Source: Acidimicrobiia bacterium (lineage in GTDB: Bacteria > Actinomycetota > Acidimicrobiia > Acidimicrobiales > AC-14). From it: 56,958 bases of DNA. The position numbers and the translations under genes are program-made. The stretch spans positions 1-56,958 of the forward strand of contig JAHFUR010000026.1 of NCBI GenBank assembly GCA_023264995.1, in the 5' to 3' direction. Positions 47,487-56,672 of this stretch are shown here, in pieces; position 1 is the first letter of the stretch, and each line of letters opens with the position of its first letter. The notes under the pieces are model-generated. The model was not told where the DNA came from. It saw only the letters and a program-made list of their open reading frames with translations, and did no database searches.

Positions 47487-47834
47487 TCAGGACGGCTGGG
47501 CCGCCGTCGCGCCCGCCGTCGTCGCGTCGACCCAGGCGTCGAGGCTGGCCGGCGTGATGTCACCACCGCTCAAGCGGCCGATCTCGGCCCCGTCGCGGAA
47601 CAGGAGGAAGGCCGGAAGGCCCATGACCCTCAGCGTCATGCACAGCCGGCGGGCGGTGGGAGCCTCCAGCTTCACGATCGAGAGGTCGCCGGCGCGGTCC
47701 GCCGCCATCTTCTCGACGTGGGGCATCAGTGCGATACAGGGCCGGCAGTCCGGGCCCCACACGTCGACCAGGACGGTGCCCTGGGCGACGAGATCGTCGA
47801 AGTTCTCCTTCGTGACCTCAACGAGGTTGCTCAT
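47487..47834 (-). CDS. thioredoxin with atypical GPDCRPC site, glycine-reductase-associated type
   Basis: 115-residue thioredoxin fold. The active site reads VDVWGPDCRPCIALMP, so the usual WCGPC is replaced by GPDCRPC. Glycine reductase operons of clostridia carry thioredoxins with the same deviation (GCVPC or GCEPC) and the same following pattern KALMPDVEEL; here it is IALMPHVEKMA. The later segment ARRLCMTLRVMGLPAFLLFRDG also fits that group. Family knowledge therefore suggests it re-reduces GrdA, whose operon ends 3.3 kb upstream on the same strand. The ATG overlaps the stop of a small upstream frame (ATGA). Confidence 0.9.
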   Translation of the reverse strand: MSNLVEVTKENFDDLVAQGTVLVDVWGPDCRPCIALMPHVEKMAADRAGDLSIVKLEAPTARRLCMTLRVMGLPAFLLFRDGAEIGRLSGGDITPASLDAWVDATTAGATAAQPS

Positions 47835-48049: not shown

Positions 48050-50164
48050 TCAGGCGAGCGCCGACGAGGTGCCGGCCGGCCCCTCGCGCACCGGAGGTGC
48101 CCACTCGAGCGTGCTGTCGGTATCCGGGGCCAGGAGGTTGCCGATGGCCTCCCGGATGGCGCCGAGGCTCCTCTCGTCGTCCGTGCTGACGTAGACGTGG
48201 ACCGGGATGTCCTCGTCGTGCGCGTCGGCACGCCGTACGGACTGGTGGTGCAGCCAGTCGACCGTGCTACGTGAGGTGATGAGCACCGACACCAACCTGG
48301 CGTCAATCGCCGCTCGGATGATCGAACGGCGATTGGCCCCCCCGCACACGAGGATCACCGCGTTCCGGCTCGCGGCGGTGGCGAGGTCCTCGTAGTTGAG
48401 CCCTACGAGCACGCTCTTCGTCTCGGCTCGGGTCCCGTCGTGGTTGATGAACACGCCACCGATGGTCCCGGCAATGCGTTCGTCAGTCGTCGGCGGGAAC
48501 AGTTCCGGGCTCACGCCGCTCCACTGGTAGAGCCCGGACTGCTCGTCCCAGGGCGAGGCGGACACAAGGACGACGTCGGCGCCTTGGAGGCGCTTGGTCA
48601 GCTCCTCGTCCCAGGCGTTCAGCGTCCCGTCCAGCATGTAGCCGGGCTGAGTAAAGGCCTCGACCGTCCCGGCCGTCCCGGCCGTCCCCGCCCTCCCGGC
48701 CGTCCCCGCCCTCCCGGCGTAGAGGGAGCAGAGCTCGTGGGCGATCGACTCGGCTCCGAGGCTGGGCTGCGCGGGGAGGACTCCGATGGCGGGGGACCAC
48801 GTGAGATGGGCGCCGTGAGCGGAGGGGAGCTCGATCTCGCCGGCGGCATACATCTGCCGGAGCTCGTCGACGACCTGGCGCATGACCCAGCCCCAGGAGA
48901 CAACGATCCGGCCGCCGCCCTCGGAGACAAGGCGGGTGACGACCGCGTGAAGGTACCCAGCGGTCGCCCGGTGGAGGGCATGACCTTCCTGGTCCGTGTA
49001 CGGCTCGTCATTGAAGTCGACCGCGACGATCTCGGTCAGGTCGAACGCGGCGCGGAGCTCGGCCCGCTGCAGCGTGGGCGTGGGTGGGCTGCTCACCTCT
49101 ACGGCGAGGCCCTTGGCCCAGTCCTGCGCAGAGCGGGTGTTGTCAAGGCAACCGGTGTTCACGCCGGGGAGCTGGCAGGTCTGCTCGAGCATCCGGCCAC
49201 CACCGCCGAACGGCCGCGATTCCGCTGGCTCGTGGAAGGAGATCACCGTGTCGCACCGGTGCTCGATGATCTCGTTGGCGACGAGTACGTCTCCGCCCTC
49301 GGGGCCGGCAAGGAGGGGCATGACCTTGTCGGAGAACTCCGGGTGGACGGCAATCTCCAGTTGCCGGCGAAGGTCGCTCAGCGCGGCCGACGGTCGCCGC
49401 CCTGGGTCGATGGATGTCCCCAGCGACCCGAGGGCGCGGTCGAAGTACTCGATGGGTTGGCTGCCCATCCCGTCGAGGAACTCGACCTCCTGGGCCTCGT
49501 TGGCATACAGGAGCTTGAGCAGCCAGCCCGTCGTGCCGGTGGCCAGGATCCGGTAGTGGCGCGCGAGCATCGCCACGTTCGCCTTGACGAACTCGATCAT
49601 GGTCCCCTTGCTGCCGTCGTTCGACGTCAACGCGAGTGTCCGCTGGCCGAGGTGGAGGGGGCGCCCGTCATTCAGGATGCCTGGCCGCCAGTTCGCTGGC
49701 CGCCACATCACGCCGTCTCGCGGGGGCTCCGCGGCGAGGTCCAGCAGCGCCGGGGCTTCAAAGAGCGCCCATCGCGCCGCGTCGGCGTAGGTGATGATGA
49801 GCCGTACGCCGCGCTTGTTGGCGACCCGCTTGAGGATCTGGTTCTGGATGTCGTCGTGGTGGGGGTCACGGGCATCGATGAGGAGGAGCACGGCTGAGCA
49901 CTCGCCCCTGGCCACCATGGCGGCCACTTCCACCAGGCCGCCGTGGCTGCCCGTCCGGTGGCTCACAACATCGGCGCGTTCGTACAGGCCCGTCCCGGTG
50001 AGGCTGAGCGCCGTCCCCTCGGTGCAATGAAGGGCGAAGTTCTTGAGGGTGTCGGCATGCGCCCGGGCGAAGGTCAGGAACGGGCTGAGCTCGCCGTCTC
50101 GGGCGTGTGGGCTGGCCACCAGGATGACCTGCGGCTTGGACGGTACGCCGCTATTCGCCGTCAT
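48050..50164 (-). CDS. double methylglyoxal-synthase-like plus SorC-domain protein
   Basis: 704-residue cytoplasmic protein of unusual architecture. Domain 1 (about 10-135) and domain 2 (about 175-355) are both methylglyoxal-synthase-like: VILVASPHARDGELSPFL and IDARDPHHDDI in the first; LALTSNDGSKGTMIEFV, the phosphate loop ILATGTTGWL, AGPEGGDVLVANEIIEHRCD and VNTGCLDNTRSA in the second. Domain 1 keeps the PHxxD-like His/Asp but lacks the GGD Asp; domain 2 keeps GGD but has RPFGGGG instead of PHDPD. Residues about 375-680 match the SorC sugar-phosphate sensor domain (VLVSASPWDEQSGLYQWSG, GTIGGVFINHDG, VILVCGGANRRSIIRAAIDA). No helix-turn-helix is attached. ATG 50164 overlaps the upstream gene by 14 bp. 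Phosphosugar sensing is inferred. Confidence 0.75.
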   Translation of the reverse strand: MTANSGVPSKPQVILVASPHARDGELSPFLTFARAHADTLKNFALHCTEGTALSLTGTGLYERADVVSHRTGSHGGLVEVAAMVARGECSAVLLLIDARDPHHDDIQNQILKRVANKRGVRLIITYADAARWALFEAPALLDLAAEPPRDGVMWRPANWRPGILNDGRPLHLGQRTLALTSNDGSKGTMIEFVKANVAMLARHYRILATGTTGWLLKLLYANEAQEVEFLDGMGSQPIEYFDRALGSLGTSIDPGRRPSAALSDLRRQLEIAVHPEFSDKVMPLLAGPEGGDVLVANEIIEHRCDTVISFHEPAESRPFGGGGRMLEQTCQLPGVNTGCLDNTRSAQDWAKGLAVEVSSPPTPTLQRAELRAAFDLTEIVAVDFNDEPYTDQEGHALHRATAGYLHAVVTRLVSEGGGRIVVSWGWVMRQVVDELRQMYAAGEIELPSAHGAHLTWSPAIGVLPAQPSLGAESIAHELCSLYAGRAGTAGRAGTAGTAGTVEAFTQPGYMLDGTLNAWDEELTKRLQGADVVLVSASPWDEQSGLYQWSGVSPELFPPTTDERIAGTIGGVFINHDGTRAETKSVLVGLNYEDLATAASRNAVILVCGGANRRSIIRAAIDARLVSVLITSRSTVDWLHHQSVRRADAHDEDIPVHVYVSTDDERSLGAIREAIGNLLAPDTDSTLEWAPPVREGPAGTSSALA

Positions 50165-50759
50165 CGGCCTGGTCCAGTTCCCCCAAGGGTGGGCCGTCGA
50201 GCGTCGGCTCGTCCCCGGGGGGCCGAAGCAGGCGGAACAACTCGTCGGGGTTGCGCAGGAGCGAGGGATCGCGCTCAAGGGCCCGCTGCTCGGCGACCGA
50301 CATCGTGTGGGCGACGACCGAGCTTTTGCCCGAGGGCAGCGTCAGCTTGACGATCAGGATCGAGCCGATATGGAGAACGGCTCGTTCGGTGTGCTCCAGG
50401 GCGGCAAGCAAGTCCTGAGCTGCGCTGGCGTTGTTCTTGTTGGCCTCGCTCAGCGGCCCATCGAGATGTTGGACCTGCAGCGCGTGTTCGACCTTGGCCA
50501 CGCGCTCGTCGATGCCGGCACGAGCCTCGGGCGTGGAGAGCTTCGCCTTGCCGAGCTGGAACCATGACCCCCTGATCGGGTCTCCGGAGTACTCGAGTTC
50601 GACGCCTTGGCCGTGCAGGAGCTCCTCGAGCGCGGCCCGCACGTTGAGGAACACCCGCTCGTCGGTGCTGTCGATGTACAGGTCGACGGAGAGCCCGTCT
50701 CGCTCATCGACGCGGTCACCCGGGCCGATGCCTGTCCTCGGATCGAACCGCCCCGCCAC
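50151..50759 (-). CDS. uncharacterised 202-residue partner of the MGS-SorC protein
   Basis: Not recognised. The N-terminal part is beta-strand-like (GLSVDLYIDSTDERVFLNVR) with a helix (AALEELLHGQG); the middle is a Lys/Glu-containing helical hairpin (GIDERVAKVEHALQVQHLDG, then ANKNNASAAQDLLAALEHTE); the C-terminal part (VLHIGSILIVKLTLPSGKSS ... VAEQRALERDPSLLRNPDELFRLLRP) reads like a small compact domain, and the tail is acidic (LGELDQADDGE). It overlaps the MGS-SorC gene by 14 bp, so the two are co-translated and probably work together. No signal peptide or membrane segment. GTG 50759. Confidence 0.7.
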   Translation of the reverse strand: MAGRFDPRTGIGPGDRVDERDGLSVDLYIDSTDERVFLNVRAALEELLHGQGVELEYSGDPIRGSWFQLGKAKLSTPEARAGIDERVAKVEHALQVQHLDGPLSEANKNNASAAQDLLAALEHTERAVLHIGSILIVKLTLPSGKSSVVAHTMSVAEQRALERDPSLLRNPDELFRLLRPPGDEPTLDGPPLGELDQADDGE

Positions 50760-51130: not shown

Positions 51131-51598
51131 CTACGCCTGAGCGCGCATGCCGGCCACCGTCGCCGCCAGGGCGTCGGCCTCCAGGACATCGGCCATCACG
51201 CCGATCTGGGCTTCCCAGACGTCGTCTGGGATGTCGGCGTGGATCAGTTCTTCGAGCACGTGGTAGGTGGGGAGGCCCAACTGGGCCCCGGCCAGGGCAC
51301 CTGCGTACGACGGGTCGCCCACGATGACCGTTTCAGCGGCGATCTCGGCGCTCTCCGGGTCGGGAGAGCCGAGCAGCACCACCAAGTCGGCCTTGTCGTA
51401 GGTCTGACTGGCCCGGAGGATGGCCTCCTGGGTCTGCAGGTCCATGGCGCCAGCGGCGGTTCAGACGAAGCACTCGGTGGCCACGAAGACCACCTCGGCG
51501 CCGGCGGCCTTCGCGCACGCGGCGATGGCGGGCCCGGAGATCCCGTCGCGTTCACCGACCGCGATCACTTTCTTGCCTTGGAGCAAGTTGCTGTTCAC
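51131..51598 (-). CDS. grdA: GrdA selenoprotein of a glycine-reductase-type complex (TGA = Sec46)
   Basis: 155-residue carrier selenoprotein A. It takes the carboxymethyl group from protein B as Se-carboxymethylselenocysteine and passes it to protein C. Reading through the TGA at 51461-51463 gives a full-length Grd[21 protein letters not shown], then ATECFV[14 protein letters not shown], then [20 protein letters not shown] and [15 protein letters not shown]. The Sec context CFVUxAAGAMDL is the family signature and the length matches (usually about 158). GTG 51598 directly follows the grdC stop, with GGAAGG as ribosome site. Without recoding, only a 104-residue C-terminal piece or a 45-residue N-terminal piece would be annotated. 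Confidence 0.95.
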
Positions 51599-53023
51599 CT
51601 ACCTTCCAGCTTCTAGGCCGACGTTGCGTTCGAGCAACACGCTCATCCCATCGGACAGTTGGCACATGCGGCCCAGGAACAGGCTGCCCTTGGCCAACAG
51701 CATGACCTTACCGGCGCCGCCGGTGGTAAGGCGATCCAGGGCGTGCGGCACGTAGCAGAGGGCCGACGCCAGGTGGCCCTGGGTAGGGGCGTAGCCGGGC
51801 ATGCCCCGTTCGGCCACGAAGGCGGCGATGTCGGCCCGGGCGATGTCGCCTTTGGCCGCGGCCAGGGCGGCGATGATCTTGTAGTTGCGCTCCGGCACGT
51901 TGCCCGAACCCTGGGGCTCAGTGATCTCGGGGTTGTGGAGCTCGGTCGCGTAGTCGTCGACGTCGGTCATGGCGATGCCGTTGCGGGTGAGCGGTTCGAT
52001 GGCCAGCGCCTTCATCACCTCGGCCGCCGCGCCGCCGGCGGACACCTTGTGGCGGCCGACCACGTCGAGGCGGACCCTGGGCGACGTGCCGTCGTCGGCC
52101 TCGACCAGGCAGGCCGTGCCGCCGAGGACGTCCTCCATGATGGGGAGCTCCTTGGCCAGGTGGCCCTGGAACTTCATGCCCAGCTTGGCCATCGACCCAC
52201 CGGAGACGATGGCCACCCGGCGGAAGACGCCGGCACTCACCAACGACGAGGCCACCACCAGGGCGGGCACGAAGGCGGCGCAGAAGTTCTTGACGTCGGC
52301 GCCGGAGGCGTCGGTGCACCCGGCGGCCTCGGCCACCGCCTTGCCCATGTTGCCCCCGCCGCGCTGGTAGCGGTCGCCGATGGCTTCCTCGCCGCAGCCG
52401 ATGACGTAGTCGATGGACGTGGGGTCGATGCCGGAGCGTTCCAGGAGGTGGAGGAGGGCCAGGGTGGCCGTGGCCTTGGCCGCCAGGTTGTCGATGAGGA
52501 CGTGGGCCGACAGGGACTCGTCGTCGGCCTGGGCGCAGCGCATGACTGCGCCGGCGGTGAGGCGCAGGGCCTTGGGCTCGGCGGCCACGGCCTCGATGTC
52601 GCCGGCGGCCTTGTCGATCTTGTCGAGGGCGAGCGCTTTGGCCAGGGGATGGCCGGCCAGCGCGGCCGCGGCGGTGGCGGCCGCCTCCGGCGAGAGGGCG
52701 AACAGCTCGAAGTCGTCGACCGCGGCGAGCAGGCCGAGGAACTCCTCCTCCGGCATGATCTCGCCGAACCGCCCGGTGCGCCGGGGGGCGCCGGCGTTGG
52801 CCGACCACGGCCGGTCGCCCAGGTCGCGAGGGTGGATGTTGCCGATCCAGGCCTGGTGGGGCGGGTAGGCGGCGGCCTCGTCGTAGGTGCGGAGGGCGGC
52901 GGCGAACCTCTCGGCCTGTTCGGCGCTCTTGGGCAGCTCCCGCCGGGGCTTGGATCCATGGCGGGCCAGGCTGGGCACGTGGGCCAGGACCTGGGCGGCG
53001 GCACTGATGACGACGTCGGGCAT
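51599..53023 (-). CDS. grdC: GrdC, protein C beta subunit of glycine-reductase-type complex
   Basis: 474-residue ketoacyl-synthase-III-like subunit that receives the two-carbon unit from GrdA as an acetyl thioester and, with GrdD, releases acetyl phosphate. Family features: AAAQVLAHVPSLARHGSKPRRE at the start (cited by SLARHGSKPRRE), YVIGCGEEAIGDRYQRGGGN, and KNFCAAFVPALVVASSLV, whose Cys is in the FabH nucleophile position; HNPEITEPQGSGNVPERNYK and RGMPGYAPTQGHLASA are conserved GrdC blocks. It follows grdB by 4 bp. The partner GrdD is not present anywhere in the window. Confidence 0.93.
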   Translation of the reverse strand: MPDVVISAAAQVLAHVPSLARHGSKPRRELPKSAEQAERFAAALRTYDEAAAYPPHQAWIGNIHPRDLGDRPWSANAGAPRRTGRFGEIMPEEEFLGLLAAVDDFELFALSPEAAATAAAALAGHPLAKALALDKIDKAAGDIEAVAAEPKALRLTAGAVMRCAQADDESLSAHVLIDNLAAKATATLALLHLLERSGIDPTSIDYVIGCGEEAIGDRYQRGGGNMGKAVAEAAGCTDASGADVKNFCAAFVPALVVASSLVSAGVFRRVAIVSGGSMAKLGMKFQGHLAKELPIMEDVLGGTACLVEADDGTSPRVRLDVVGRHKVSAGGAAAEVMKALAIEPLTRNGIAMTDVDDYATELHNPEITEPQGSGNVPERNYKIIAALAAAKGDIARADIAAFVAERGMPGYAPTQGHLASALCYVPHALDRLTTGGAGKVMLLAKGSLFLGRMCQLSDGMSVLLERNVGLEAGR

Positions 53024-53027
53024 ACCC

Positions 53028-54320
53028 CTAGTTCACTTCGAAAATGGTCGGTTCGTGGACGGTGGTCGCCACCGCTTCCAGGGCCCGTTCCAGCAGCCGC
53101 TGGCGCCAGGCCCGCTCCGCCGCCGGATCGAGCGACGGGTCGCCGGCGGGGAAGGGGATGCCGCGGGTCGGGACGATGCGCGGCGCGCCCACCCGTTCGG
53201 CGATCGACGTGAGGTTGCACAGCAGGGCGGTGGGGATGCCGGCCCGTTCCAGTTCCTTCGCAAGCGTTGCCCCGCAACGCGTCCCTGTCCCTCAGGTGGC
53301 GGTGAGGATGGCGGCTCGGGCGCCGGAGTGGCGCAGGTCGGCGGCCCATTCCACGCCGAACTTGCGGGCGTTGGCCACCGACGTGCCGTTGCCGGCGGTG
53401 ACCAGGAACTCCTCGTGCAGGTGGCCGATGGCCCCTTCGCGTTCGAGCTGGCGGGCGGCGTCGAGGGGGAGGATGCGGTGGGGGTCGGCGTTGGCCCACA
53501 CCGTGGAGAACCCGCCGTGGACCGAACGCCACTCGCCGGGGACCAACGTCTCCCGGCCGGCCAGGGAGTAGCGCAGCCACCGGGTGGCCCGGGCCGACTC
53601 CAGGCTGCCGGGGTTGTCGTCGGGCACGAGGGCGCCCTCGGTGAGGATGGCGAGGGTGGAGTGGGCCAGATCTGTGACCGGGGGCGCCGGCGTGACCTTG
53701 TCGAACTTGGGGAGCGGCACCTCGGTGGCGTCGCGGTCGCCGGCCAGGCGGGCCAGGACCAGGTCGACGGCCCGTTCGGCCGCGGTGCGGTCCGCCATCC
53801 GGGGGAGGCGGGGGGCCAGGCCGACCAGGCCGTCGGCGCTGGTGAGCACGCCGCCGGCCAGCAGCTTGGCCACGGCGGCGGCCAGCACGTCGAGGGCCGC
53901 GCCCATGAGCCGGGCCGCCTCGCCGGTGGCGACCACGGGGGCGGCGCCGGCCTCGTCGATCCCGGGGTTGTCGGGGTGCATGGCGGCCACCGCCGGCAGG
54001 CCGGTGGCCATGGCCGCGGCGGCGACCCGGGCGCAGGCCAGCCCGTAACGACCGCTGGTGAACGCCGGCCCAGTGACGACGAGGTCGGGCTCGGCGGCCT
54101 GGATGAGGGCGACGATCTCGGCGATGGCCTCGGGCCGGCCGGCGGCATCGTCGTCGCCGCAGGAGACGGTGGCCACGATCTCGTGGTCGGCGCCGAGGAG
54201 CTGGGCCAGGCGCCGGCCGGGGCCGACGGGACCGGGCTGGGTGGCCGGGGGGGAGGCGGCCGCGTCCTCGCCGCCGGCGCCGATGAAGAACTGGTTCAGG
54301 TAGTGGACGATGCGAGCCAC
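53028..54320 (-). CDS. grdB: GrdB selenoprotein, substrate-binding subunit of glycine-reductase-type protein B (TGA = Sec343)
   Basis: 430-residue subunit that attacks the C-N bond of the bound amine and transfers the carboxymethyl group to GrdA. The frame from GTG 54320 (VARIVHYLNQFFIGAGGE) runs to a TGA at 53292-53294; reading it as Sec gives ILTAT-Sec-GTGTRCGATLAKELERAG and then IVPTRGIPFPAGDPSLDP to TIFEVN and a TAG at 53028. This is the exact position and context (UGTxTRCGA) of Sec in known GrdB, and the total length matches. VTGPAFTSGRYGLACA is another conserved block. A perfect hairpin follows the TGA. GTG 54320 abuts the grdE stop with GGAGG as ribosome site. Confidence 0.95.
53264..53280 (-). 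promoter_or_regulatory. candidate bacterial SECIS hairpin in grdB
   Basis: On the grdB mRNA the UGA is followed after 11 nt by GCGUUGC-GGG-GCAACGC, a perfect 7-bp stem with a 3-nt loop. Bacterial SECIS elements lie just this far downstream of the Sec codon and are read by SelB. The short loop differs from the E. coli fdhF type, as is known for clostridial grd genes. Confidence 0.6.
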
Positions 54321-55562
54321 TTACGCCTCCGGGGGACTACAGGTCAGGCGCCCGCCGCCGAGGCACCCGAGCGATGCGAGGATGACCGCGGTCGGCAGCT
54401 CCATGGCCTCGGTGGCCGCCACCCCGAGGAGGGCCAGCTCGGCCCCGCCCAGCGCCCGGTCCATCCTCGGGAGGGACAGCCGGGTGTCGTAGTTCCCGGT
54501 GCTCACCATGGCCGTGGCCCGCTCGGGGGCCACCACGATGGGCGGTCCGGTGCCGTCGGGGCCGGCCATCTCGGCGAACAGGCCCACGGTGGCGATGCCC
54601 AGGTCCTCCAGGGCATCCATCTTCAGGGCGACGTCGGCATCGGCGTTCCCGCCGCCCTCCTTGGTGAGGATGACCGCGTCGAACCCCGCGTCGGCGCATA
54701 GCTGGGCCGCCGCGGCGGAGATGCGGGCCTTCTCGCCGGCGGTGACCGGCTCGGGGCAGAGGACCACGCCGGCAAAGGACAGGTCGCGCCCGTGGCGGGC
54801 CCGGAGGGCGTTGGCCACGGGGTGGTTCTGGTGGGCCCAGGTGGGGTTGCGCAGCGACGGGTGGCCATACTGGCCGCTCACCACCGCCCCGTCGTCGATC
54901 TCGGCCGGGTCGATCAGCGCCGGTGCCTGCCCGTTGAAGCTGGCGCCCCGCACGAACACGTCCTTGAACACCCCCTGGGTCTGCAGGTTGGTGATGGCGG
55001 CGACGCGGGGCAGCCCGTCGACCGGCCCGGGGTCGACCACGGTCTCCAGCTCGTCGGGCGGGGCGTCGATGGCGGCCTCGGCCAGGCGAGCGGCCAGGGC
55101 GAGCGAGCCGCGGCGCAGAGCGTCGTCGACCTCAGCCCAGTCGGCGCCGGCGGCCGGCGTGAACTCGATGACCAGGTTGTGGGTGGCGCCGAACGGGGAG
55201 AGCTCGGCGGCCGGGCCGCACATGTCGATCACCGCTTCCTGGGCCCGGGGCAGGTAGCCGGCCACGACGACGGCCGCCCCCCGTAGCACGTGGGTGACCC
55301 CGCCGGCGGAGGCAGCGCCGAGCCACCCCGGGAAGATGCCGCCGCCTCCAGGGCCTTTGGTGCGGGGCTCCACCACGTCGAGCACCTTGACGATGCGCAC
55401 GGCCTCCCCGGGTGATGCCCAGGAGACGCCGACCTCGGCCAGGCAGGCGGCCCCCAGGATTTCCCTGGCCTCGTCGGGTGAGACGGTGAGCGCGCCGTCT
55501 CGCCAGGCGGTCGCCGGCCCGATTTCGACGCGGCGTACGCTATGGATCGACCTCGTCAGCAC
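54321..55562 (-). CDS. grdE: GrdE-like subunit of protein B, lacking the pyruvoyl-forming Cys
   Basis: 413-residue homologue of the GrdE proprotein, which in glycine reductase self-cleaves to make a pyruvoyl group that activates glycine as a Schiff base. Conserved blocks: VKVLDVVEPRTKGPGGGGIFPG (cited VLDVVEPR and GGIFPG), TNLQTQGVFKDVFVRG, NPTWAHQNHPVANALRARHG, VILTKEGGGNADADVALKM and STGNYDTRLSLPRMD. The known cleavage pair Asn-Cys in SGNCxSxxxKNPTYVH corresponds here to SGQYGHPSLRNPTWAH, so Gln231-Tyr232 replace it. Processing and Schiff-base chemistry therefore seem unlikely. GTG 55562; first gene of the operon, directly followed by grdB. Confidence 0.9.
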   Translation of the reverse strand: MLTRSIHSVRRVEIGPATAWRDGALTVSPDEAREILGAACLAEVGVSWASPGEAVRIVKVLDVVEPRTKGPGGGGIFPGWLGAASAGGVTHVLRGAAVVVAGYLPRAQEAVIDMCGPAAELSPFGATHNLVIEFTPAAGADWAEVDDALRRGSLALAARLAEAAIDAPPDELETVVDPGPVDGLPRVAAITNLQTQGVFKDVFVRGASFNGQAPALIDPAEIDDGAVVSGQYGHPSLRNPTWAHQNHPVANALRARHGRDLSFAGVVLCPEPVTAGEKARISAAAAQLCADAGFDAVILTKEGGGNADADVALKMDALEDLGIATVGLFAEMAGPDGTGPPIVVAPERATAMVSTGNYDTRLSLPRMDRALGGAELALLGVAATEAMELPTAVILASLGCLGGGRLTCSPPEA

Positions 55563-55592: not shown

Positions 55593-56672
55593 TCATTCCA
55601 GCCAGTGGGGCTGCAGCCGCTCAGGACGAAAGACCTGGCGTGGCGGTTCGGCGGCGAGGACCACGACGTGGTCCAGCGTGGCCTGCACGACGGTACGGCG
55701 CTCGGCGACGCTCATCTTCGCCCACTGCGGGCGGAGCGACTGGCCGGCGCCGGCCAGCTCCCTGAGGGCACCGAGCCGGCCGATCCGGGCGACTTCGGCC
55801 TCTGCGACCTGGAGCCGCTGGCCAACGTTGCGCTTGAGCGACAGCCACTCTTCCCGGCTGAGCTGGCCCGACGCCCACAGGTCGCCCAGGTCGTCGAGCC
55901 GGCCGCGGTGGGCGGCCAGCTCCCGCAGCGAGTCGCGCCCGTCGACGGGCGCGCCGCCCGGGCGGAGGGCGTCGAGACGGTCGAGCACCATCTGGCCGAC
56001 GGCCTCCTCGGCCAGGTCGGCGGTGACCGCCGTGCCGGAGCACCCTCCGTGGGGTGGCCCCGGGCAGACGTAGAGGTCGGCGCCGCGGGACCGAGGCATG
56101 CCTCTGAGGCCGCCGCCGCACCGCCAGCAGCGCAGAAGGCCGCTGAGCAGGTAGCGCCGGGTGGCCCGTCGGGGGCCCTTGCCCCGGGACGCATGAAGGG
56201 CGATCAGCCGGTTGTGGGTGTCCTCGTCGAGGACCTGGGGTGGGGCGACGAGCCGAGGCTGCACCAGCAGGCTGGAAAGGGAGTTCACCCGCCACGGCCC
56301 GCCGCCGGCGGTGGTGAGGCCGCGGGCGTTCCAGTCACGGACGATGGCCGACAGGGTCTCGCCGTCCAGGACGCGTCGCGCCGCCTCCCTGATGGCGACG
56401 GCTTCGTCCTCCACCACGTGACGGCGGTCGGCGCTGTGGCCGAAAGCGCGGCGCGACGGCGCCCGGTTGGGAGCGTCGGGGACAGCGGCAAGGACCGGAC
56501 CGCCCGGCGAACGTTGCCTCACCGGTTCCATGTGCGGGTCCTCACAGTCCTGGCCAGGTCGGTCTCCCTCGGATCCCGTGCACGGTTTTTTACGGGCAGG
56601 GAACTGCCCGTGCACTCCTGTACGGACCCCGGTAGCGACCTGGATGACGGGAACCGGTGATGTGTATTTCAT
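55593..56672 (-). pseudogene. large serine recombinase remnant without catalytic domain
   Basis: The last about 300 residues of the frame carry the recombinase domain (VVEDEAVAIREAARRVLDGE ... IVRDWNARGLTTAGGGPWRV, cited by EAARRVLDGETLSAI and WNARGLTTAGG), a zinc ribbon (LLRCWRCGGGLRG ... LYVCPG) and the C-terminal coiled-coil region. The N-terminal resolvase domain with the catalytic Ser is missing; the first about 55 residues are not recombinase-like and no upstream frame supplies it. It is most likely a decayed integrase. Its stop is 30 bp from the grdE start, so it marks the left border of the grd operon and suggests past mobility. Confidence 0.75.

What the first reader, a model, noticed from the sequence alone, without database searches (positions are those of the whole stretch)
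51461..51463. In-frame TGA in grdA is selenocysteine (Sec46)
Read through, the TGA sits in the context [14 protein letters not shown], the invariant Sec signature of glycine reductase protein A, and yields a normal 155-residue protein. A standard caller would report a truncated 104-residue fragment. It implies active selenocysteine insertion (selA, selB, selC, selD) in a GC-rich, probably actinobacterial genome.
Basis: partly seen in the sequence, partly recalled or inferred. Interest (0 to 1): 0.88.

Follow-up and report, generated by a model that had tools for sequence, protein, structure and literature searches.

The report
Selenoprotein reductase lacking its GrdD partner
The in-frame stop codon really does look like selenocysteine in a glycine-reductase-type enzyme, and this soil and groundwater bacterial version is unusual because it lacks the partner protein and the cofactor site that the textbook clostridial enzyme uses.

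Summary
Confirmed. The TGA at 51461-51463 (minus strand) is codon 46 of grdA; read through, it gives a 155-aa GrdA. The genome carries SelA, SelB, SelD and tRNA-Sec(UCA). GrdA occurs in 25 of 395 same-class genomes, always with one TGA.

The Sec is expected for GrdA; its setting is less ordinary. The window holds grdE-grdB-grdC-grdA, with trxA 3.3 kb downstream, and no grdD. GrdD was found in 0 of 25 GrdA-bearing genomes of the class and 0 of 19 named genomes of the same GrdB clade, but in 6 of 7 control genomes. GrdC lacks a C-terminal tail that 41 of 41 GrdD-associated GrdCs have. The GrdE homologue has lost the pyruvoyl site (present in 0 of 26 clade loci, 50 of 50 canonical), as betaine GrdI and, by report, fluoroacetate FarE have.

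Best reading: a thioredoxin-driven selenoenzyme reducing a substituted acetate without a Schiff base. GrdC, of thiolase/KAS III fold, may hand the acetyl group to CoA instead of phosphate. Substrate and acceptor are inferred. Novelty: a new variant of a known kind.

The parts
51461..51463 (-). UGA codon 46 of grdA, read as selenocysteine
   Evidence: TGA in 25 of 25 GrdA genes of the class
51131..51598 (-). grdA, component A selenoprotein (155 aa, GTG start, CFVU motif)
51599..53023 (-). grdC, component C subunit beta (474 aa), thiolase/KAS III fold, Cys248; lacks the C-terminal tail of GrdD-associated GrdC
   Evidence: NF040746 552 bits
53028..54320 (-). grdB homologue, component B selenoprotein (430 aa), substrate specificity subunit
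   Evidence: TIGR01918 406 bits against cut-off 65; below the glycine, sarcosine and betaine model cut-offs
53292..53294 (-). UGA codon 343 of grdB, second selenocysteine
   Evidence: 116 of 116 extracted GrdB genes (some loci fetched twice) have one in-frame TGA
53264..53280 (-). hairpin GCGUUGC-GGG-GCAACGC after the grdB UGA, SECIS candidate
   Evidence: fold; covariation over 87 distinct sequences; frozen synonymous sites
54321..55562 (-). grdE homologue (413 aa), component B partner, pyruvoyl-site cysteines absent
   Evidence: PF09338 316 bits
47487..47834 (-). trxA, thioredoxin with CRPC motif, homologous to the trxA inside the cassette of relatives
   Evidence: 61% to the L045 cassette thioredoxin; ThioredTrxAClost 91.9 bits, under its cut-off of 140

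Best explanation
The TGA is Sec46 of GrdA. It is part of a four-gene selenoenzyme block (grdE-grdB-grdC-grdA, plus a thioredoxin) with a second Sec at GrdB position 343. Shown by sequence: both Sec codons are conserved, the Sec machinery is present, GrdD was not found in the assembly or in any tested relative of the clade, the pyruvoyl-site cysteines are absent from the GrdE homologue, and GrdC is tailless with its conserved Cys kept. Inferred mechanism: thioredoxin reduces GrdA (CxxU). Component B (GrdE homologue plus GrdB Sec343) binds an X-CH2-COO- substrate without forming a Schiff base and displaces X. The carboxymethyl group passes to GrdA Sec46. GrdC cleaves the selenoether, holds the product as an acetyl thioester on Cys248, and passes it to an acceptor other than GrdD, most likely CoA. 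My own odds: Sec insertion 0.97, glycine-reductase-type chemistry 0.85, a substrate other than free glycine 0.65, acetyl-CoA as product 0.4.
For: Sec. SECIS candidate in grdB: at the hairpin positions 92.4% of cells pair in 87 distinct sequences, against 25-62% with partners slid by 1-3; pairs change G-C to U-A (23), U-A to C-G (6) and U-A to A-U (8); codons +4, +5, +6 and +9 keep one codon in 25 of 25 deduplicated clade members and +7 in 24 of 25, while +1 to +3 and +10 vary. No GrdD: 0 of 25 class genomes, 0 of 19 named clade genomes, against 6 of 7 control genomes (the two sets share at least one genome, L057 and L109); GrdD lies in 41 of 41 canonical loci with a full-length GrdC. Tailless GrdC: 24-35 residues follow the KGSxFL motif in 38 of 38 GrdD-less GrdCs, 53 or more in 41 of 41 canonical; the GrdC tree parts the two sets at one branch, 100/100. 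Pyruvoyl site SGNC: 0 of 26 clade loci, 50 of 50 canonical. Betaine GrdI lacks it in the 2 of 3 GrdH loci where I found the GrdI frame, and PMC10838667 says so of FarE and GrdI (passage). GrdC fold: thiolase and KAS III chains, VIA-align Z 21-23 for the rows shown. Acetate kinase was not found in 14 of 25 GrdA-bearing genomes of the class.
Against: The genome of the window itself has an acetate kinase match over cut-off (profile 88-398 of 405), so an acetyl phosphate product is not excluded there. The GrdC residue that I hoped would mark GrdD-less proteins (His363) is also His in 4 of 41 canonical ones and Glu in one GrdD-less one. No CoA site was tested. The grdA site has no hairpin more stable than shuffles (z +1.0), and the minimum-energy test against synonymous shuffles was negative for grdB too (mean z +0.86 over 26). 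In 3 of 21 named clade loci no grdA was found (L110, L111, L113); two are short contigs, L110 is not explained. Two GrdD-less loci outside Actinomycetota (L132, L137) keep the pyruvoyl site, so loss of GrdD and loss of that site are separate. The clade is known here only from MAGs.
Confidence: 0.8

Rival explanations
1. It is a betaine reductase in function: component B takes glycine betaine, whose trimethylamine leaves without a Schiff base, but with a sequence lineage separate from clostridial GrdHI.
For: GrdI of true GrdHI loci (L175, L176; in the third, L174, I did not find the frame) lacks the pyruvoyl-site cysteines, as this clade does; PMC10838667 makes the same statement about GrdI (passage).
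Against: The window GrdB scores 353.9 bits with the GrdH model against a cut-off of 775, less than with the sarcosine or glycine models. The two GrdH rows sit among clostridial rows in the tree, away from this clade (quick tree, long branch). No betaine transporter was seen among the 10 flanking genes of relatives that I scanned.
Confidence: 0.25
2. It is an ordinary glycine or sarcosine reductase, and GrdD is merely missing from draft assemblies.
For: Component A and C models hit well over cut-off.
Against: GrdD was not found in 25 of 25 class genomes (19 of them at least 90% complete and at most 5% contaminated) and 19 of 19 named ones. GrdC lacks the tail and the GrdE homologue lacks the pyruvoyl site, which chance gaps would not cause.
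Confidence: 0.05
3. The A and B selenoproteins with thioredoxin serve as a peroxidase or redox protection system, and no substituted acetate is reduced.
For: A peroxidase activity of GrdB is named in the title of a 2007 paper seen in a reference list.
Against: grdC, which handles the acetyl group, is kept with its invariant Cys (79 of 79). GrdB of this clade lacks the CxxC beside Sec (0 of 26), which PMC10838667 describes as protecting the Sec from oxidation (passage).
Confidence: 0.08
4. It acts on a halogenated acetate, like the fluoroacetate reductase of Synergistota.
For: The GrdE homologue lacks the two cysteines and GrdB lacks the CxxC, both reported for FarE and FarB (passage).
Against: The GrdE homologue scores 135.9 bits with the FarE model against a cut-off of 675, less than with GrdG. 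The radical SAM and antiporter partners of the far operon were not among the window neighbours scanned.
Confidence: 0.06
5. The TGA is a true stop or an assembly error, and grdA is a pseudogene.
For: Only that table 11 reads TGA as stop.
Against: The same codon is kept in 25 of 25 class genomes and in 82 of 83 extracted genes, the other being cut off before the site; the Sec machinery is complete.
Confidence: 0.01

Closest known systems
Glycine reductase GrdABCDE of Clostridia (GrdE pyruvoyl type)
   Same: GrdA with CFVU, GrdB with Sec, GrdC, a GrdE homologue, linked thioredoxin; grdB hairpin after UGA conserved from Clostridia to here.
   Different: No GrdD, tailless GrdC, no pyruvoyl-site cysteines, no CxxC beside the GrdB Sec, gene order E-B-C-(Trx)-A where many of the fetched clostridial and synergistote loci have Trx-E-A-B-C-D.
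Betaine reductase component B, GrdHI
   Same: Component B without the pyruvoyl-site cysteines.
   Different: GrdH score is the lowest of the three substrate models for GrdB; separate place in the quick GrdB tree; GrdHI works with a grdABCD complex (passage of PMC8547467).
Sarcosine reductase component B, GrdFG
   Same: Best-scoring of the substrate-specific models listed for either B subunit.
   Different: Far below the required scores: 403 against 800 and 221 against 780.
Fluoroacetate reductase FarBE of Cloacibacillus
   Same: No pyruvoyl cysteines in FarE and no CxxC in FarB, by report (passage).
   Different: FarE model 135.9 against 675; by that report Far feeds the host's GrdA and C, which are not in the far operon, while here A and C are in the cassette.
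Thiolase and KAS III enzymes
   Same: Fold of GrdC, and Cys248 aligns with a Cys of KAS III that I recall as the catalytic one.
   Different: Only 11-19% identity in the structure alignments shown; GrdC is not known to me to condense acyl groups.

Membership tests
GrdA selenoprotein family | Full-length GrdA profile match over the curated cut-off | tested here: met
   NF040748 194.5 bits against 130
GrdA selenoprotein family | Sec (UGA) in the CFVU motif | tested here: met
   Codon 46; 25 of 25 in the class
Selenocysteine-decoding genome | SelA, SelB, SelD and tRNA-Sec | tested here: met
Selenocysteine-decoding genome | SECIS hairpin after the UGA, grdB | tested here: met
   Covarying hairpin, frozen synonymous sites; SelB binding not tested, energy tests not significant
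Selenocysteine-decoding genome | SECIS hairpin after the UGA, grdA | tested here: inconclusive
   No excess stability; synonymous sites only partly frozen
Canonical glycine reductase (GrdABCDE) | GrdD, component C subunit alpha, forming acetyl phosphate | tested here: not met
   0 of 25 class genomes over cut-off; own weak hit 21 bits against 350
Canonical glycine reductase (GrdABCDE) | Pyruvoyl-forming cysteine site in GrdE | tested here: not met
   SGQYGHPS in the window; 0 of 26 clade loci against 50 of 50 canonical
Canonical glycine reductase (GrdABCDE) | Glycine as substrate | not testable with these tools
   TIGR01917 367 bits against 602 argues against
Betaine reductase GrdHI | GrdH model score over cut-off | tested here: not met
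   353.9 against 775
Betaine reductase GrdHI | GrdI-like absence of the pyruvoyl site | tested here: met
Sarcosine reductase GrdFG | GrdF and GrdG model scores over cut-off | tested here: not met
   403.4 against 800; 220.6 against 780
Fluoroacetate reductase FarBE | FarE model score over cut-off | tested here: not met
   135.9 against 675
Glycine/sarcosine/betaine reductase component C subunit beta (GrdC) | NF040746 match over cut-off | tested here: met
   552.1 against 450

The most novel reading that the evidence does not exclude
A second great branch of the glycine reductase family exists in Actinomycetota, Dormiibacterota, Myxococcota and perhaps further phyla. It works without GrdD and, in this clade, without a pyruvoyl cofactor. 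A tailless thiolase-like GrdC hands the acetyl group straight to CoA, so that a substituted acetate is reductively assimilated and not fermented for ATP, on a substrate not yet known for the family.
Probability: 0.35. Interest if true: 0.72.

Novelty: new variant of a known kind. Interest (0 to 1): 0.52.

Why it matters
Glycine reductase is the classic selenoenzyme of amino-acid-fermenting anaerobes, and acetyl phosphate formation by component C is its point of energy conservation. A widespread form without GrdD and without the pyruvoyl site says that the bond-cleaving half and the acetyl phosphate half can be uncoupled. That makes two open points testable: what the pyruvoyl group is needed for, and what GrdC can do by itself. 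It also means that a caller which reads every TGA as stop truncates both selenoproteins in these mostly uncultured Actinomycetota.

Tried and rejected
Whole-code reassignment of TGA: rejected, TGA ends 26 of 43 called frames of at least 150 aa in the window. A pseudogene: rejected by conservation. Thermodynamic tests for a SECIS: folding energy against synonymous shuffles gave mean z -0.16 for grdA (22 sequences) and +0.86 for grdB (26); against dinucleotide shuffles the window's grdA gave +1.02 and grdB -1.33. None is significant, so I turned to covariation and synonymous-site conservation; for grdA the question stays open. GrdC His363 as a marker of GrdD-less proteins: not strict, 4 of 41 canonical have His. 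Flanking genes as a clue to the substrate: the cassette flanks are not conserved between loci, and 10 neighbours scanned gave no common theme. Solved structures of GrdB or GrdE relatives: none found by sequence profile. Rfam on the window: no match at gathering scores. The clostridial paper on a GrdD active-site cysteine was not found in the library, so that point is recalled only. Papers on glycine reductase in Acidimicrobiia or on Grd without GrdD: no such report among the listings (open-licence PubMed Central only; most listed papers were not opened, among them PMC10826368, the sponge-microbiome paper PMC5649159, and PMC10059138 and PMC10536192). The contacts of GrdC Cys248 with the histidines could not be measured, as I had no model coordinates. 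L095 and L104 of the 21 named clade loci were not given to the whole-genome GrdD search; their contigs hold none. A GrdI frame was not found in L174.

Full report
WHAT WAS CHECKED. The minus-strand frame 51131-51598 holds an in-frame TGA at 51461-51463. Read as Sec it gives a 155-aa protein with the motif [13 protein letters not shown]. It scores 194.5 bits with the NCBIfam GrdA model (cut-off 130) and fills the Pfam GRDA profile from 1 to 147.

SEC MACHINERY. The window lies on contig C53 of an 81-contig assembly of 3.8 Mb, 97.95% complete. That assembly has tRNA-Sec at C7 (66.4 bits, cut-off 47; anticodon TCA), SelB and SelA over cut-off side by side on C7, and SelD over cut-off on C36 with one TGA inside. 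A formate dehydrogenase alpha-like gene on C16, below the model's cut-off and matched in several pieces, also carries an in-frame TGA in the context ENQARI-U-HSST. The genome therefore very likely decodes Sec, and grdA is one of at least four likely selenoprotein genes.

CONSERVATION. Of 395 genomes of the class, 25 (the window's included) have GrdA, and in each of the 25 the match holds exactly one TGA. Full-length GrdB was found in 24 of these 25 and in none of the other 370; in the one exception, G113, grdC is cut by a contig end, so grdB may lie beyond it. Over all extracted loci, 116 of 116 GrdB and 82 of 83 GrdA have one in-frame TGA; the exception, L148, starts at a contig end after the site. 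Rows are not independent: some genomes are near relatives and some loci were fetched twice.

SECOND SEC. grdB (53028-54320, minus strand) has TGA at codon 343, 53292-53294. A hairpin GCGUUGC-GGG-GCAACGC lies 12 to 28 bases after this UGA. In 87 distinct sequences from Clostridia to Actinomycetota its seven pairs are formed in 92.4% of cells, against 25 to 62% when partners are slid by one to three bases. Three pairs change on both sides (G-C to U-A in 23 sequences, U-A to C-G in 6, U-A to A-U in 8); the weakest two pairs, outermost and innermost, hold in 76-77%. In 25 deduplicated clade members the codons +4, +5, +6 and +9 have one synonymous form in 25 of 25 and codon +7 in 24 of 25, while +1 to +3 and +10 vary. 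I take this as the SECIS; that the bacterial SECIS is such a hairpin is recalled knowledge. For grdA nothing as clear was found.

GENE ORDER. The block reads grdE-grdB-grdC-grdA (55562 down to 51131). A thioredoxin at 47487-47834 is 61% identical to the one that sits between grdC and grdA in relatives; in the window two other open frames lie between grdA and trxA. Of 21 named loci (58-91% GrdB identity; Acidimicrobiia, Solirubrobacterales, Thermoleophilaceae, Dormiibacterota and others by title), 13 have E-B-C-Trx-A, 4 have E-B-C-A without a thioredoxin found, L094 has it about 6 kb on, and 3 show no grdA. Flanking genes are not shared. This looks like a compact cassette that moves as a unit, an inference. 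In the quick GrdB tree the 25 rows of this clade are one group with SH-aLRT 100 and a long stem.

NO GRDD. Component C normally has two subunits. The NCBIfam GrdD model found no match over cut-off in any of the 25 GrdA-bearing genomes of the class or in 19 of 19 named clade genomes, nor in 7 of 7 other genomes tested (L119, L132, L137, L138, L150, L166, L168). It did find GrdD in 6 of 7 control genomes; the seventh, a Desulfovibrio MAG, has only a part, 109 bits. The weak hits elsewhere are 35 bits or less, against a cut-off of 350; in the window's genome the weak hit lies within its only match to the broader PlsX-containing Pfam family PF02504. The class set and the named set share at least one genome (L057 and L109 have identical GrdC). 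In the loci, 41 of 41 canonical ones with a full-length grdC have grdD; 10 of the 52 canonical loci have no grdD in the stretch, all of them without a full-length grdC there. GrdC tells the same story: after the KGSxFL motif 24 to 35 residues follow in 38 of 38 GrdD-less GrdCs, but 53 or more in 41 of 41 canonical ones (counted from the start of the motif). Of these 38, 36 were tested for GrdD by whole genome, L095 and L104 by contig only. In L172 GrdC and GrdD lie in one 865-aa frame. In the careful GrdC tree the 41 canonical rows are one side of a branch supported 100/100; whether the GrdD-less rows are one clade depends on the root, which is unsure, and L132 and L137 are long branches. That the tail docks GrdD is my inference. 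Acetate kinase was found in 11 of 25 of the class genomes, the window's included.

NO PYRUVOYL SITE. Canonical GrdE has SGNCV[AS][AS]C; the labelled C. difficile peptide with the cysteine-derived pyruvoyl group begins at residue 242 (passages of PMC9908766). The motif is in 50 of 50 canonical loci, 0 of 26 loci of this clade (25 distinct; window: SGQYGHPSL) and 0 of 18 other loci of the class; 16 of those 18 keep the second cysteine. It is kept in L132 and L137, which lack GrdD. True betaine GrdI sequences (L175, L176, beside GrdH over cut-off) lack it too: SGSFMPSSS. PMC10838667 states that FarE lacks both cysteines and is not a proprotein, similar to GrdI. Likewise the CxxC after the GrdB Sec is in 52 of 52 canonical and 0 of 26 clade sequences, as that paper reports for FarB. 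So component B here is built like those for substrates thought to need no Schiff base.

GRDC. The predicted model (mean pLDDT 93) has the thiolase and KAS III fold (Foldseek E down to 4.5e-10; VIA-align Z 21 to 23 over about 250-295 residues, rmsd 3 to 5, for the 50 rows shown). Cys248 (79 of 79) and His417 (79 of 79) are invariant. Without GrdD, Cys248 is the obvious place for the acetyl group, and CoA the obvious acceptor for this fold. This is a hypothesis. Recalled, from no call: in the clostridial enzyme a GrdD cysteine carries the acetyl group.

NAME OF THE SUBSTRATE. The B subunits reach none of the substrate-specific cut-offs listed: GrdF 403 of 800, GrdB 367 of 602, GrdH 354 of 775; GrdG 221 of 780, FarE 136 of 675. 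I therefore file the system as a variant of the glycine/sarcosine/betaine reductase family and name no substrate. Betaine is the first to test.

PRIOR WORK. I read passages (and of PMC10838667 the abstract), not whole papers, of PMC9908766, PMC10838667, PMC3091704, PMC8547467 and PMC1794560. The last reports no known Cys-containing GrdA homologues as of 2006, and GrdA and GrdB in Symbiobacterium, which it lists under Actinobacteria. The listings showed no report of Grd in Acidimicrobiia or without GrdD, within an open-licence library and without opening most of the listed papers.

VERDICT. The interest lies in the variant around it.

Noticed in passing
G000:C16:18838-19569 (L188): Formate dehydrogenase alpha-like gene with an in-frame TGA in the context ENQARI-U-HSST, a further likely selenoprotein of this genome.
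   Followed up: partly
G000:C36:4151-5071: SelD of the genome itself has one in-frame TGA; in G138, G328 and G197 of the GrdA-bearing set the best SelD match has none.
   Followed up: no
window 55593-56672 and L094 362-1372: A serine-recombinase-like protein (Recombinase and zinc ribbon domains only were matched) lies just upstream of grdE in the window and in its nearest relative (72% identity).
   Followed up: partly
window 48050-50278 and 50151-50759: Between grdA and trxA lie two overlapping frames; the longer has a methylglyoxal synthase-like and a sugar-binding domain and gave no match in the 15 loci or the 80.
   Followed up: no
class-wide: Some 100 genomes of the class without GrdA have shorter proteins that match only the C-terminal part of the GrdB profile (the listed ones); what they do is not known to me.
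   Followed up: no
L172 5179-7776: GrdC and GrdD lie in one open frame of 865 aa, an apparent natural fusion.
   Followed up: no
L049, L050, L058 and L070-L079 (family f50): In several genomes of this family grdC and grdA are together but the component B genes lie elsewhere; in L070 and L071 the GrdB motif is UGTGTRSG.
   Followed up: no
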